DNA from: a virus
DNA length: 25,587 nt
Direction: 5' to 3' (one strand)
Virus record (IMG/VR): IMGVR_UViG_3300042305_001426
Span: 1 to 25,587 of that record
This document shows, in pieces, positions 20,064 to 25,587 of this stretch; the first letter of the stretch is position 1; every line of letters starts with the position of its first letter. A program made the translations under genes and the position numbers. The notes beneath the pieces were generated by a model. That model did no database searches, was not told the DNA's origin, and worked only from the letters and a program-made list of their open reading frames with translations.

Positions 20064-20562
20064 ATAACGTGATCACCGTCGCTCCAGTCGGAGGGAAGCC
20101 GACCGTCTCGGGAGCGATGGTATAGACTCCGGATTCGACGAGCTCTCCGAAGTTCCAGGTCTCCGGAACGAGGACGAGGTCCGGACCTCTCATCGTCGGA
20201 GCGGAGTCTCCGGACAGCCACCCGTGATAGACGAGACAATCCGCAACCGCTTTCTGATAGTTGTCCCAGTCTCCGATATTGCCGGGCATCAATCCCTTTC
20301 GAGGTCCAGACTTGCAAGGACCGACGAAGACAGCAGTCCCGAGACGGACGATCCCGTCAAACGGTTTGACCGGTCGAAACGGGACGGACTGGAGGAACGA
20401 AGCGATCCGCTTTTGGTCGGCATGATAGGCTTTCGCTTGAGGAGAGAAGTCTCTCCGGTTCGTCCGTTTCGCTGGAACGATCCTCCAGGGAATGACGACT
20501 CGGAGGAGCGCATCTTCTCGGCTTCGACTCAACTCCAGTCGGAGATCATAAGTCTTCGTCAT
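20047..20562 (-). CDS. RusA-like Holliday-junction resolvase
   Basis: The frame is open upstream to 20745, but the true start is ATG 20562 (MTKTYDLRLELSR), with GGAG upstream by seven bases, overlapping the primase-helicase end by 17 bases. The 171-residue protein contains GDWDNYQKAVADCLVYHGWLSGDS at about 97-120, matching the RusA motif 'P/G-D-x-D-N-x-x-K-A-V-x-D-x-L-x-x-x-G-x-x-x-D-D/S', with D98, D100 and D108 as the metal-binding acids. RusA cleaves four-way junctions made during phage recombination and replication. The segment PVKPFDGIVRLGTAVFVG is a plausible dimerisation strand region. It closes the replication module. Confidence 0.8.
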   Translation of the reverse strand: MTKTYDLRLELSRSREDALLRVVIPWRIVPAKRTNRRDFSPQAKAYHADQKRIASFLQSVPFRPVKPFDGIVRLGTAVFVGPCKSGPRKGLMPGNIGDWDNYQKAVADCLVYHGWLSGDSAPTMRGPDLVLVPETWNFGELVESGVYTIAPETVGFPPTGATVITLWSTLR

Positions 20563-22546
20563 CGTTGAACTCCGTCCAGTGTTTCGGGGTCGGTTCGGCT
20601 CTCGGTCGTTCCGGCTCAATCGACGACTTCTTCCGACGAGTCCTCGGGACTTCGACCGTCTCCGAGTCGGTCCCTCCGAGAGCGGCTTGGAACGCTTGAA
20701 TCGTCGCAGCGTCCGGAGGCTCGAATCGAGCGGACTCAACAACAAACTTGAATCCGACCGAACCTTCGACAGCGAAGTCCGACCGAGCTTTCAAGGCATA
20801 GACGTTGGAGACGCCGAATCCGCTGGAGACGACTCCGGTCCGGTCCGCTTTTCGAGGTCTCCAGACCGAGAGGATATTGTCGGCCATCTGTTTCAGGCCC
20901 GAGCTCCCTTTGAGGTCGCTCATTTGTATAATCCGATTATCTTTGTGTTTCTCGTCGGAGGCGTGGTGCTGTCTCGGATGAGCGACAACGACAACGTGAG
21001 TCTTCGTGTCGACAGCGACTTCCGCCAACATCTTCATCATCCCGTCTAGCTCGGACCTCTCGTTCGGTCCCTCCTCAATCATAAAGTGAAGATGATCGAT
21101 AAGCATAAACCGGACGCCGAGTCTCCGGATTGCGTAAAGGAGTGTGTTCCTCATCGGCTCTAGTCGGATCGTTCCGTAACGGTTGAGGAGCCAGATCGGG
21201 AGTCCCTGGAGTTGATCGAGAGTGATATCGAGAGCGTCCTCGGTCAACTTGTCCGGAGCGGACTGGGACCACTGTCGGACCCACTTGTCTAGCTGCCGAC
21301 TCGATCCCATCTCGAAAGGACAGACGAGGGACCGGACTCCTTGTGTCGCCATCTGGAGTGCCCATTGGCTAGCGAACGTCGACTTCCCGGAGCTTGTGTC
21401 TCCGGTTACAAGAGTAATCTCTCCGTCTCGGACTCCTCCGAGGACCGAATCGAGGTCGGTCCAGCCGGTCGATATTCCTCTCGGGTTTGTGTTCCGGAGG
21501 TCGGACTTGTATCGCTCCCGGAGCGACTCGATCCGAACGACCGCGTCTCCTCCGGAAGCTTTGGATTGATCGATGCAAGCTCGGACGTCGAAACGCTCTC
21601 CGAGACCCTGGAGCGCTTCGTTGGCGTCCTTGTGTCCGGTCGGCCAGTTCCCGATCCGGACCCTATGTTGTCCGAGCTTCTCGGAGAGCGCTGTCGCTCC
21701 CTTTCGACCGGCGTCGTCGTTGTCATATATGATCACGATGTCGTCGCAGGATTCGAGACGAACGTTCCAACTGTCGCTCCATCCGGTCTCTCCGGTCGTC
21801 GTTGAGATGACGTTCGGGAATCCGGCGACAACGACCGAGAGAGCGTCCAGTTCTCCTCCGACGACGAGGAGCGTCGTTGTTGTGTCGATCCCGTTCGGAG
21901 CGAACAAAGCGGACTCTCCTCCAGCGATTCGACGAAAGGTCTTCTCCGCTGGAGGAATCGACCGGAGTTTGACGCAAGAGACCGAGTTCGGGTCCGGTCG
22001 TCCGTCCTTCGACCATGCGGAGAACGTCGGGATGACGAGCCAACCCGGACCGATCTCCGGTTCCGGTTCCGGTTCGATTCCTGGAATCCTCCGTCTTGGA
22101 CGAGCTTCGGTCGCGATCGTCCCGTCGGGACTGGACGACCATCCGAGACGATATCGCTCCGCAATCGAGAGCGGAATCTTCCGGGTTTCGAGATATCGTC
22201 TCGCAGTCCCGGCAAGTGTTGAATTGACGAGAGCGGTCGTCCAGCGCTCAACGTCGGTCGATTGAGTCGTCGACTTGAGCTCCCTCGCCATCCTTTCGAC
22301 TGCTACCGTCTCCGGATCGGCTCCGCTGGAGTCTTGGACATCGTATTGGAGTCCGAGCGCTTTCTTGAGCGATGTCTCGTTCCCTCGTTCGTCGCAGCGC
22401 TTACAATGCCAAACGAAAGTCTTGAGGTTGACATATAAGTGATCCGGCTTTCCGCAAGAGGGGCAGTCCGAGACTCCCTCGTTCCCTCGTCGCTTGAACG
22501 GAAGTCCGTTTCTTCGGAAGAAGTCTTCCGGGTTGTCTTGTCTCAT
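20546..22546 (-). CDS. Primase-helicase (T7 gp4-like fusion)
   Basis: The 666-residue protein has a full set of motifs: a zinc ribbon CPSC (C28, C31) with C48 and C51; a TOPRIM domain with GGELDALSVVVAG (E232) and YDNDDAG (D275, D277); and a RecA-type helicase with Walker A GDTSSGKST (382-390), a probable Walker B FMLIDHLHF (480-488) and a motif near residues 519-528 (VVVVAHPRQH). This is a bifunctional primase and replicative helicase fused in one chain, as in phage T7 gp4. The start ATG 22546 has GGAGGAGAG upstream. The end is polar and acidic and overlaps the RusA-like gene start. It would unwind and prime phage DNA replication. The helicase part is well conserved, so confidence is high. 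Confidence 0.93.
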   Translation of the reverse strand: MRQDNPEDFFRRNGLPFKRRGNEGVSDCPSCGKPDHLYVNLKTFVWHCKRCDERGNETSLKKALGLQYDVQDSSGADPETVAVERMARELKSTTQSTDVERWTTALVNSTLAGTARRYLETRKIPLSIAERYRLGWSSSPDGTIATEARPRRRIPGIEPEPEPEIGPGWLVIPTFSAWSKDGRPDPNSVSCVKLRSIPPAEKTFRRIAGGESALFAPNGIDTTTTLLVVGGELDALSVVVAGFPNVISTTTGETGWSDSWNVRLESCDDIVIIYDNDDAGRKGATALSEKLGQHRVRIGNWPTGHKDANEALQGLGERFDVRACIDQSKASGGDAVVRIESLRERYKSDLRNTNPRGISTGWTDLDSVLGGVRDGEITLVTGDTSSGKSTFASQWALQMATQGVRSLVCPFEMGSSRQLDKWVRQWSQSAPDKLTEDALDITLDQLQGLPIWLLNRYGTIRLEPMRNTLLYAIRRLGVRFMLIDHLHFMIEEGPNERSELDGMMKMLAEVAVDTKTHVVVVAHPRQHHASDEKHKDNRIIQMSDLKGSSGLKQMADNILSVWRPRKADRTGVVSSGFGVSNVYALKARSDFAVEGSVGFKFVVESARFEPPDAATIQAFQAALGGTDSETVEVPRTRRKKSSIEPERPRAEPTPKHWTEFNDDEDL

Positions 22547-23130
22547 ATTGCTCTCCTCCGACGTGCGATTGTCTGGAGAGCGACTCTTTCGACCTCCTCG
22601 TTCGCTCCATCATCGGGAGCGGAGAGCCAGCGCTCAAGACGCTCGGTCTTGAACGCGTGACTTGTGTCCGTATATCTGCCTTGAACGTGCCAGTCCGAGG
22701 ACATCAATCCGTCGACGGCTTTCTTCAATTGATCGACCGAATATCCGTCCCGGATACGAGCTCGGACGATGCCGAGTCTTGCGCTTGTGTATTCGGTCCG
22801 CTCCGGTCTCCCGGTCTTCGTCCGCCAATACTCCAAGACGATCAAGACCTCCGCTTCGTCCGGAGTCGCTCGTCGGCTCTCCGGATCGGAAAGCTGGAAC
22901 TCGTCTCCGTCCCAGGTAGGTTGACCGTCTTCCGGGAGAGCGGCGATCATCGCTTCGATGCCTCCGAACGGGTCCGGTTGATCGAAGACAATCTCGATCA
23001 TCCGAGAGAGGTCAGACCGTCGGAATCGAACGGTTCTCGCTCCCTTGGCGAATCGAATCTTGGCAGCGAGCCAAACAACCCGAGCTCGGAGACGTGCAAC
23101 GTTGACAGTTATTTCGTCCGTCCTCGTCAT
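22543..23130 (-). CDS. DnaD/Phg_2220_C-like replication protein, likely helicase loader
   Basis: The true start is probably ATG 23130 (195 residues), since the longer frame to 23448 covers the next gene. Residues about 92-170 match the phage-type C-terminal replication domain: EVLIVLEYWRTKTGRPERTEYTSARLGIVRARIRDGYSVDQLKKAVDG then WHVQG then HAFKTERLERWLS. The family pattern is 'I-x-x-L/Y-x-x-x-T/G-R... I-x-x-R-L/I-x-x-G-Y-x-x-x-x-x-x-x-I/V-D... W-x-x... F-x-x-x-L-x-x-W/Y-L'. These proteins act as replication initiators or helicase loaders. Its stop overlaps the primase-helicase ATG (ATGA), supporting a functional pairing. The N-terminal 90 residues look helical and basic then acidic. Confidence 0.72.
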   Translation of the reverse strand: MTRTDEITVNVARLRARVVWLAAKIRFAKGARTVRFRRSDLSRMIEIVFDQPDPFGGIEAMIAALPEDGQPTWDGDEFQLSDPESRRATPDEAEVLIVLEYWRTKTGRPERTEYTSARLGIVRARIRDGYSVDQLKKAVDGLMSSDWHVQGRYTDTSHAFKTERLERWLSAPDDGANEEVERVALQTIARRRRAI

Positions 23131-23141
23131 GTTGCAACCTA

Positions 23142-23648
23142 TCAGAAAGGAGTGTCGTCCAGTTCGTCCGAGTGTCCGTCTCCGTCCAGCGGAGGGAGCA
23201 TGGTCTCTCCGTATTCGTCCCGGAGACGCTGGAGGTCCGCTTTGTTGGGAGGAGCAAAGAACGCGGCTTCCGTCTTGTCCCGTCGCTCTCCCTTGTATTC
23301 TTCCGAGGTCGTCTTGACCGTGATTCGGACGATACGATCGAGGAGCGCTTCTTCGACCGCTGTCTTGTTTTGAGCGTCGAAGGGTTTGACCGATCCGCAA
23401 GCTCGGAGAAACCGGACGAATCGAGGGAGAGCTTTCTCGGACAGCCAAAAGCGGTTGAACTTGAGACTCCGTCCCTTTGTAGGGTTCGCAGGATCATGCA
23501 CAGTGAACGTCACTTCAACAAACGCAGTTCCAGACTTGGAGTGATCCGGCCACGCTTCGGAAACGAAGACGAGATATTCTCCATCCGGGAGAGACTTCGG
23601 GGCGAGACGTGCATCCCATTTGTTATCGGCAGCGTTGATCAAGGTCAT
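23142..23648 (-). CDS. DUF669 protein with SSB-like acidic C-terminus
   Basis: The 168-residue protein matches the DUF669 pattern: LPDGEYLVFVSEAWPDHSKSGTAFVEVTFTVHD, then GRSLKFNRFWLSEKALPRFVRFLRACG, then a basic segment (DRIVRITVKTTSEEYKGERRDKTEAAFF) likely to bind DNA. It ends GHSDELDDTPF. The acidic tip ending in Pro-Phe closely resembles the DDIPF C-terminus with which single-strand DNA-binding proteins recruit partners. DUF669 genes usually sit beside phage recombination genes. So it probably coats single-stranded DNA and recruits the neighbouring recombinase or primase-helicase. The start ATG 23648 has GAGGAAACCCG upstream. Confidence 0.78.
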   Translation of the reverse strand: MTLINAADNKWDARLAPKSLPDGEYLVFVSEAWPDHSKSGTAFVEVTFTVHDPANPTKGRSLKFNRFWLSEKALPRFVRFLRACGSVKPFDAQNKTAVEEALLDRIVRITVKTTSEEYKGERRDKTEAAFFAPPNKADLQRLRDEYGETMLPPLDGDGHSDELDDTPF

Positions 23649-23699: not shown

Positions 23700-24623
23700 T
23701 TAGACTTGTCGACGTCGGGACGACTGGACCGAAGCGACTGGAGATTGAACCTCCGTCGGAACGACTGGAGAGGTCTTCTCGGGACTCGGAGCGGAGACGA
23801 AGTCGGACGAGTCGCAGTCCTCGGACGCAACCGGGAGATCGGGAAACGAGAATCGGAGGAGAGACCCGAGCGTCGTTTGTCCAGGTGTCCGAGTGTTTAC
23901 CGTGACAGCAGGCCAACCGGGAGCGGGTTTCGTGATCGCGGTTGCGGTTGCGGAGCTCCAGCGGATGAGATGTTGGAGCGACTCTCCGCTCCGACGGACG
24001 GTCGCAAGTCCAACCGCGTTGAAATATTGGCCCATCGAGAACGGGAGCTTTTGTCCAGCGAGCATCGGGATCGTCGTCCGGACTTGTTGATCGTCGGTCC
24101 GGTCTTCGGCAAGGAACAAGAAGACCGTTGAGCAAGGGAGCGCTCGTTGTTGACTCCAGACCGCTTCGCAACCGGAGGTCAACTGGCCCCATTTCTCGAT
24201 TGAGAGGTTGACCGCTCCCGAGTCGAAGTCCAGTCGGTCCCGAGACCCGGATTCAACTCCAGCGAGCTTGTTGATCGCGAGTCGCTGGAGGTCTGTGAAC
24301 GAGTCAACGACGAGCGTTTGGAAGACGAAAGTCTGTCCCTCGATCGTCGCTTGAGAAGCCGGTTGACCGTCGATCTCGGTCGGTTGAGCGAGTTTGACCG
24401 CGTCGAAGACCTTTCGGAAGTCTTCCCAGCTTTCGACGAGAACGACCATCGCTTCCGGGTTGGCGGTCTGAATGGAGGCAAGACCTTGAGGTTCGGTCAA
24501 GACGATCAACGGTCTCGGAGACCTTGCGGCCCATTCCGTCTTTCCGGCGCCGCTTGCTCCGACGATTGCGATCTTGAGAATAGGTGCCCGCTTGTAACTG
24601 TCTTGAGCTCGTCCGATTCGCAT
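23700..24623 (-). CDS. Sak4/RecA-like recombinase ATPase
   Basis: The true start is ATG 24623 (307 residues), with AAGGACAG upstream; the longer frame to 24941 covers a neighbour's gene. Walker A is GASGAGKT (residues 22-29) and Walker B TLVVDS (103-108, D107) followed by TDLQRL. The core length and spacing fit the AAA_24/Sak4-type single-strand annealing ATPases of phages, which work with an SSB and a nuclease. Residues about 140-230 (WGQLTSGCEAVWSQQRALPCSTVFLFLAED) fit the ATPase core. The C-terminal 50 residues are Ser/Pro/Val-rich and look disordered. The neighbours, a DUF669 protein and a PD-(D/E)XK nuclease, support the call. Confidence 0.78.
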   Translation of the reverse strand: MRIGRAQDSYKRAPILKIAIVGASGAGKTEWAARSPRPLIVLTEPQGLASIQTANPEAMVVLVESWEDFRKVFDAVKLAQPTEIDGQPASQATIEGQTFVFQTLVVDSFTDLQRLAINKLAGVESGSRDRLDFDSGAVNLSIEKWGQLTSGCEAVWSQQRALPCSTVFLFLAEDRTDDQQVRTTIPMLAGQKLPFSMGQYFNAVGLATVRRSGESLQHLIRWSSATATAITKPAPGWPAVTVNTRTPGQTTLGSLLRFSFPDLPVASEDCDSSDFVSAPSPEKTSPVVPTEVQSPVASVQSSRRRQV

Positions 24624-24685: not shown

Positions 24686-25587
24686 TCAAGTCGTCGTCTC
24701 CGATAGTTCCGAGTGTCCGTCCTTCGACAGATCGACAGCGAAGCCGATGACGTCCTCCGGAGACCAGGACAGACAGATCGACGCGTAGGAGCAAAGTCGG
24801 TTGTATTGCCAACAGAGAGACGGTTCTCGGACGAACGTCGATCCGTGACGATGGAGAGCTTCCGAGACGACCTCTCCGAGTCTGGGAGAGGTTCCAGCTT
24901 CCCGAATCTTCTCCGAGCTCTCCAGGATTGAATCCCTCCAAGCTCGCATCTTTGTTCCACTTGCGTAGAGCTCCCGTCCGAGTCGGTCGATTGATTCCTC
25001 GGAGAACAATTCGACCTCTCGTCTATACCAGAAACCGGACTCGTCCCGAGCTCTCAACGCTTCGTGTGTTTCTCCGTACCATTCACAGTCCGAGAGCTTT
25101 CCCGGTTGTCCAGTCAACAACGCTCCGAGGTCTTGAATCGCTCGGAGAAAGTTGTCCGCAGTCGTCCAGGGTAGACCGGCAGTCTTTGCGAGACGCTTTC
25201 CGTCCTTGAGGACTGGGAGCGCTTCCGGAGTCTTTGGAGGCTTCGACTGGACGAGGTCGAAGACGACTCCGTCGACGTCGATTCCGTTCTCTCGCAGCAG
25301 ATAAGCGTATCCGACCGCTTGAGGAGACCGACGATTCTTCTCGATCCAATCTTGAGTCGAAGACGTCGTCTTGTGTTCGATGATGAAAAGCCGACCGTTG
25401 ATCCGCGCAACCTTGTCGATCTTTCCCGAGTAGGAGATTCGATGGGCTCCTCGTTGTTTCCCAGTCGTCCGGATCCTTGCGGAGAGAGTCCGCTCGTTCT
25501 CGATCACGTCCAGCGGTTCGTCTTTCCAGCGTTCGTGATATCCGACGAGAAGCGTCTTCGCTGTCGCGACGTCTTTTGCTAACGATT
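24686..25587 (-). CDS. PD-(D/E)XK exonuclease, RecB/Cas4-like, 5' incomplete
   Basis: The - strand frame is open to the right edge, so the gene starts outside; a GTG at 25507 could be called but upstream residues (LLVGYHERWKDEPLD) clearly continue the protein. Counting from that GTG, GKIDKVARINGRLFIIEHKTTS holds the nuclease acids D31 and E44 with K46 (the D... E-x-K signature), and SPQAVGYAYLL holds a Q-x3-Y motif (Q63, Y67) typical of the RecB/AddB nuclease family. Near the end, C232, C239 and C245 form C-x6-C-x5-C, as in Fe-S-cluster RecB-like and Cas4 nucleases, with the fourth Cys probably in the missing start. It would resect DNA ends for the neighbouring recombinase. Confidence 0.85.
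   Translation of the reverse strand, partial: SLAKDVATAKTLLVGYHERWKDEPLDVIENERTLSARIRTTGKQRGAHRISYSGKIDKVARINGRLFIIEHKTTSSTQDWIEKNRRSPQAVGYAYLLRENGIDVDGVVFDLVQSKPPKTPEALPVLKDGKRLAKTAGLPWTTADNFLRAIQDLGALLTGQPGKLSDCEWYGETHEALRARDESGFWYRREVELFSEESIDRLGRELYASGTKMRAWRDSILESSEKIREAGTSPRLGEVVSEALHRHGSTFVREPSLCWQYNRLCSYASICLSWSPEDVIGFAVDLSKDGHSELSETTT

What the first reader, a model, noticed from the sequence alone, without database searches (positions are those of the whole stretch)
23142..23180. SSB-like DDTPF tail on a DUF669 protein
The DUF669 protein ends DELDDTPF, very close to the partner-recruiting tip of bacterial SSB. This supports DUF669 as an unrelated SSB substitute that recruits the helicase, nuclease or recombinase encoded beside it.
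Basis: partly seen in the sequence, partly recalled or inferred. Interest (0 to 1): 0.6.

Follow-up and report, generated by a model that had tools for sequence, protein, structure and literature searches.

The report
Phage SSB with partner-docking acidic tail
[quoted passage not shown] the less expected by-product is that related phages seem to carry the same tag on a helicase or a sliding clamp instead.

Summary
In detail: the DUF669 gene at 23142-23648 (-) ends ...DGDGHSDELDDTPF-stop. Three close relatives (81-82% identical) keep ...DDDVTPF although the preceding linker is only 3-4/14 identical and carries indels, so the tip is under selection. Reading DUF669 as an SSB with an SSB-like tip is not new: Hutinet et al. 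2018 (PMC5928155) showed that the HK620 protein assigned to DUF669 binds ssDNA and that its last six residues (NDYPPF) are needed to bring in the neighbouring Sak4 annealase. Here sak4 lies directly upstream, so Sak4 is the best-supported partner; helicase and nuclease recruitment are unsupported. 'Unrelated' is only half right: the model is an OB fold, closest to PrgE of pCF10 (Z 11.4; profile E 7e-4), though not a PF00436 SSB. The tip is not universal. One large DUF669 branch ends PPW(K/R/Q) instead, and there an SSB-like tip often sits on a neighbour: a RadD-like helicase or the sliding clamp. Two tip-only scans repeated this: every tip-bearing helicase whose stretch also held DUF669 (5 of 7) had a PPW/PW-type DUF669, and no stretch had both. 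The window is a new member of a known kind; the portable-tip pattern is worth following.

The parts
23142..23648 (-). DUF669 / PHROG 378 protein, predicted OB-fold ssDNA-binding protein, 168 aa
23145..23168 (-). SSB-like C-terminal tip DELDDTPF (residues 161-168), predicted disordered
   Evidence: conserved as DDDVTPF in L002-L004; residues 150-168 pLDDT < 50
23244..23588 (-). predicted OB domain (residues 21-135: three strands, helices, two strands)
   Evidence: secondary structure; PrgE match over 13-134
23700..24623 (-). Sak4-like ssDNA annealing protein (AAA_24), directly upstream of DUF669; start codon inferred
   Evidence: PF13479 57.4 bits; PHROG 124 E 1.8e-16; adjacent in all close relatives
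24686..25585 (-). PD-(D/E)XK (RecB/Cas4-like) exonuclease, cut by the window end
   Evidence: PF12705 25.4 bits; PHROG 1218 exonuclease
22543..23130 (-). replication initiation O-like protein, starts 11 bases after the DUF669 stop
   Evidence: PHROG 18020 E 1.1e-7
20546..22546 (-). primase-helicase (Toprim + DnaB_C), itself ending HWTEFNDDEDL
   Evidence: the same end in L003 and L004
20047..20685 (-). RusA-like Holliday junction resolvase; start uncertain
   Evidence: PHROG 140 E 3.1e-7

Best explanation
DUF669 here is the phage's own OB-fold SSB. It coats ssDNA made by the neighbouring exonuclease and by replication. Its flexible linker ends in an acidic DDTPF tip that docks the Sak4 annealase encoded just upstream and delivers it to SSB-coated ssDNA for single-strand annealing. 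Shown here: the gene, the tip, selection on the tip in close relatives, the gene order, the predicted fold. Shown by others on the HK620 protein: ssDNA binding, and tip-dependent binding and stimulation of Sak4. Inferred: that the window protein does the same, and that Sak4 rather than a host protein is the main client.
For: Tip and its conservation; PHROG 378 SSB; OB topology and PrgE as top match, Z 11.4, rmsd 3.0 over 109 residues; profile hit to PrgE, E 7e-4; the HK620 SSB model has the same order of elements and the same top match; sak4 adjacent on the same strand in every locus of the window's own clade; in the HK620-like group all 12 loci where recT replaces sak4 lack the Pro-containing tip (9 DSF, 2 DNF, 1 frameshifted) while 63 of 70 sak4 loci keep a Pro in the last three residues; direct experiment on the HK620 pair in PMC5928155.
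Against: Sequence similarity between the window protein and the tested HK620 protein is very weak (hhalign probability 10.7, E 0.003 over 56 columns; different PHROGs, 378 and 743; the HK620 protein does not reach Pfam DUF669 here), so the transfer rests on fold, gene order and tip. Model confidence is moderate (mean pLDDT 64.9). Seven HK620-like loci keep sak4 with QDF/NDF/SDF tips, so the Pro is not strictly required. The recT correlation is one clade. Many DUF669 proteins next to sak4 have no acidic tip at all.
Confidence: 0.7

Rival explanations
1. The tip imitates the host SSB tip and recruits host SSB-interacting proteins (PriA, RecG, RecO, DnaG, chi and others) to phage ssDNA; Sak4 is a secondary client.
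For: The tip is close to the bacterial DDDIPF consensus; acidic-PF tips occur on several unrelated phage SSB families, as expected if the common reader is a host pocket; phages lacking the tip on DUF669 put one on another protein.
Against: In HK620 the tip serves the phage's own Sak4 (PMC5928155). The tip's form differs between sak4- and recT-linked members of one clade, which suggests a phage partner. The host here is unknown.
Confidence: 0.4
2. The tail is mainly autoinhibitory: it occupies the protein's own DNA groove and is released on ssDNA binding.
For: The tail is acidic and predicted disordered; PMC5928155 proposes that the HK620 tail is hidden until ssDNA is bound.
Against: Does not explain conservation of the exact terminal Pro-Phe with a free C-terminus; not exclusive of docking.
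Confidence: 0.15
3. The tip recruits the helicase or nuclease next door.
For: The exonuclease and primase-helicase lie in the same gene cluster; host SSB tips bind several helicases and nucleases (established knowledge).
Against: No comparative signal links the tip to either; HK620 has no such neighbours beside sak4 and ssb yet its tip works on Sak4.
Confidence: 0.15

Closest known systems
SSB of phage HK620 (HkaK/Abc1), Hutinet et al. 2018, PMC5928155
   Same: next to sak4; acidic tail ending PF; same predicted OB order of elements; same top structural match (PrgE)
   Different: almost no sequence similarity; tip NDYPPF rather than DELDDTPF; different PHROG; tested experimentally
PrgE of conjugative plasmid pCF10 (8s4s, 8s4t; PMC11137577)
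   Same: OB fold; Z 11.4 to the window model; profile hit E 7e-4
   Different: plasmid T4SS operon, not beside sak4; the match covers only the core; binds dsDNA as well as ssDNA
DUF669 / SSB of Firmicutes phages (Javan308, Str-PAP-1)
   Same: PHROG 378 (Javan308 tested); acidic-LPF tip; sak4 nearby
   Different: 22-27% identical; an SF2 helicase gene lies between sak4 and ssb
Bacterial SSB (PF00436)
   Same: OB fold, flexible linker, acidic xPF tip
   Different: no PF00436 match; no detectable sequence homology

Membership tests
DUF669 (PF05037) / PHROG 378 | profile match over the curated cut-off | tested here: met
   27.9 bits against 21; PHROG 378 E 2.6e-10
DUF669 (PF05037) / PHROG 378 | sak4 in the same module | tested here: met
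   AAA_24/Sak4 at 23700 onward, 51 bases from DUF669
HK620-type SSB | clear sequence homology to HkaK | tested here: inconclusive
   hhalign E 0.003, probability 10.7
HK620-type SSB | OB fold with the same order of elements | tested here: met
   PrgE first for both; moderate model confidence
HK620-type SSB | acidic C-terminal tip ending in Phe | tested here: met
   DELDDTPF
HK620-type SSB | ssDNA binding and tip-dependent stimulation of Sak4 | not testable with these tools
   needs purified proteins
Bacterial SSB (PF00436) | PF00436 profile match | tested here: not met
   no match anywhere in the window record; Pfam gives only DUF669
PrgE-like OB proteins | profile and fold match to PrgE | tested here: met
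   E 7e-4; Z 11.4

The most novel reading that the evidence does not exclude
In phage modules built on Sak4 and DUF669 the SSB-like docking tip is a portable part: one protein carries it, and which one differs by lineage - the DUF669 SSB (window, HK620, Firmicutes phages), a RadD-like SF2 helicase (CRP-902 group, R7M, CAjan, L251, L276, L280, L316, L364) or the DNA sliding clamp (Ab26, L383). When DUF669 gives the tip up, it ends in a different conserved PPW(K/R/Q) tail.
Probability: 0.35. Interest if true: 0.65.

Novelty: new member of a known kind. Interest (0 to 1): 0.4.

Why it matters
The window adds a divergent member to a system known from one experiment and gives a sharp test of whether tip docking is general in DUF669 SSBs. 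The comparative by-product matters more: if the docking tip moves between SSB, helicase and clamp, it can be treated as a transferable recruiting signal. That would let one ask directly which protein reads it, phage Sak4 or host SSB partners, and would help annotate unknown phage replication proteins by their last six residues.

Tried and rejected
A host search in genome contigs with the window protein found no relative, so the host is unknown. NCBIfam gave nothing. The idea that tip-bearing phage RadD helicases simply occupy their own SSB-Ct pocket was tested by aligning them with E. coli RadD: among the tip-bearing helicases aligned, of the three pocket arginines R21 is kept only in L251 and L253, R49 in none, and R145 is Lys or Arg in all but L276 (pocket from PMC10238739), so self-docking in the known pocket is not favoured. 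E. coli RadD itself has no such tip (ends RLAHELRG). Strict one-to-one coupling of the tip with Sak4 was rejected. A 35-residue query improvised as a DUF669-like string served only to find annotated DUF669 records and carries no evidential weight.

Full report
Observation. The window is a viral record. The gene at 23142-23648 (-) encodes 168 residues ending DGHSDELDDTPF. It scores 27.9 bits against Pfam DUF669 and matches PHROG 378, 'single strand DNA binding protein'. A ribosome-binding-like GAGGAAAC precedes the ATG.

Is the tip real? The only close relatives found, L002, L003 and L004, are 81-82% identical. Their cores are 132-134/154 identical and their linkers only 3-4/14, with indels, yet all end TPF after an acidic run, with different Pro and Phe codons from the window's. 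Further out, Firmicutes-phage DUF669 proteins end DDLPF and similar (21 of 22 distinct) and the HK620 group ends in Phe in 46 of 47 distinct sequences. Among 1,501 other distinct ORF ends from the loci fetched by then, 17 had PF plus at least two acids, and 16 of those were one helicase family. So the tip is selected, but not throughout DUF669: the Hendrix pair ends DNLDL/DSLDL, and a large branch ends PPW(K/R/Q).

What it is. The module reads exonuclease, Sak4, DUF669, O-like, primase-helicase, then RusA. AlphaFold2 on 14 sequences gives three strands, helices, two strands and a disordered tail (mean pLDDT 64.9), an OB arrangement. The best solved match is PrgE of pCF10 (Z 11.4, rmsd 3.0, 109 residues; the best match outside PrgE is 6.6). 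A sequence profile also reaches PrgE (E 7e-4). The HK620 SSB, modelled separately, has the same order of elements and the same first match.

What is already known. Hutinet et al. 2018 (PMC5928155) assigned HK620 HkaK to DUF669, showed that it is a genuine SSB, noted the likeness of its NDYPPF tail to DDDIPF, and showed that removing six residues abolishes Sak4 binding to coated ssDNA and most recombineering stimulation. PMC8093625 repeats the sak4-DUF669 neighbourhood for Firmicutes phages.

Partner. sak4 is adjacent in every window-clade locus and within about 2 kb in 55 of 56 Javan308-type loci; the exception is a 1.3 kb stretch. In the HK620-like group, 12 loci carry recT in place of sak4 (with yqaJ in the one read in full, L073), and none keeps the Pro-containing tip (9 DSF, 2 DNF, 1 frameshifted); 63 of 70 sak4 loci keep a Pro in the last three residues. 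This is one clade, so perhaps one event, but it fits a partner-specific tip.

Where the evidence led. In the PPW branch, the neighbouring RadD-like SF2 helicase (about 30-34% identical to E. coli RadD over about 500 residues) often ends DDDIPF or similar: many CRP-902-type loci, R7M (EDDIPF) and CAjan (DYVPF). In Ab26 the sliding clamp ends EDDIPF, and in RHEph05 a small ORF after the helicase ends IGDIPF. Exceptions exist: PSASB_03, Paracoccus R3, yarpen and 1N2-2 showed no tip within the stretch read, and L158-type and L191-type helicases lack it.

Blind replication. A scan for DDDIPF followed by TGA, using no family information, returned mostly canonical SSB-like proteins plus helicases, an Erf, Gp2.5-like SSBs and others. 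The prediction was then written down before a second scan with TAA. Together they gave 233 tipped ORFs of at least 70 aa, 160 of them in the SSB-like cluster. Seven are RadD-like helicases; five of those stretches also hold DUF669 and all five DUF669 proteins end PPWRR, PPWLQQ, RPWGKK, PPWARK or PPWKR. Only one of the five (L364) comes from the second scan, so the prediction proper rests on a single new pair. Seven DUF669 proteins carry the tip and none shares its stretch with a tipped helicase. Two tipped proteins are relatives of the Ab26 clamp (E 3e-106 and 8e-57); Ab26 and L383 match PHROG 947, processivity factor, and L383 has a PAW-type DUF669 and an untipped helicase. These counts are not independent lineages and the stretches are incomplete, so 'one tip per module' is a hypothesis. 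I found no paper describing it among those searched, and most subscription journals are not held.

Verdict. The window feature is a good new member of a known kind. Its most likely mechanism is an OB-fold phage SSB whose tip loads Sak4. The portable tip is the part that could surprise a specialist.

Noticed in passing
L142, L166, L169, L186, L190, L193, L177, L182, L251, L276, L280, L253, L316, L364, L384; L217 9437-11230: RadD-like phage SF2 helicases end in an SSB-like tip (DDDIPF, EEIPF, EDDIPF); where DUF669 is in the same stretch it ends PPW/PW-type.
   Followed up: partly
L222 11151-12347; L383 6511-7686; L454 2791-3948: Phage sliding clamps or clamp relatives (PHROG 947 for the first two) end EDDIPF or DDDIPF.
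   Followed up: partly
L015 and L141-L199: A DUF669 branch has a conserved C-terminal PPWKR-type tail of unknown role, the opposite of acidic.
   Followed up: no
L068-L078, L086: HK620-like DUF669 genes sit beside recT instead of sak4, with tips changed to GSDSF/GGDNF (L086 frameshifted).
   Followed up: partly
window 20546-22546: The primase-helicase ends HWTEFNDDEDL, identical in L003 and L004; perhaps its own acidic docking tail, as the acidic tail of T7 gp4 would suggest.
   Followed up: no
L283 8747-9643: An Erf-family annealing protein ends DDDIPF.
   Followed up: no
L244, L247, L266, L277, L355: A family of about 207 aa ('MDILGGMSN...') without PHROG match for the member tested ends DDDIPF; candidate unrecognised phage SSB.
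   Followed up: no
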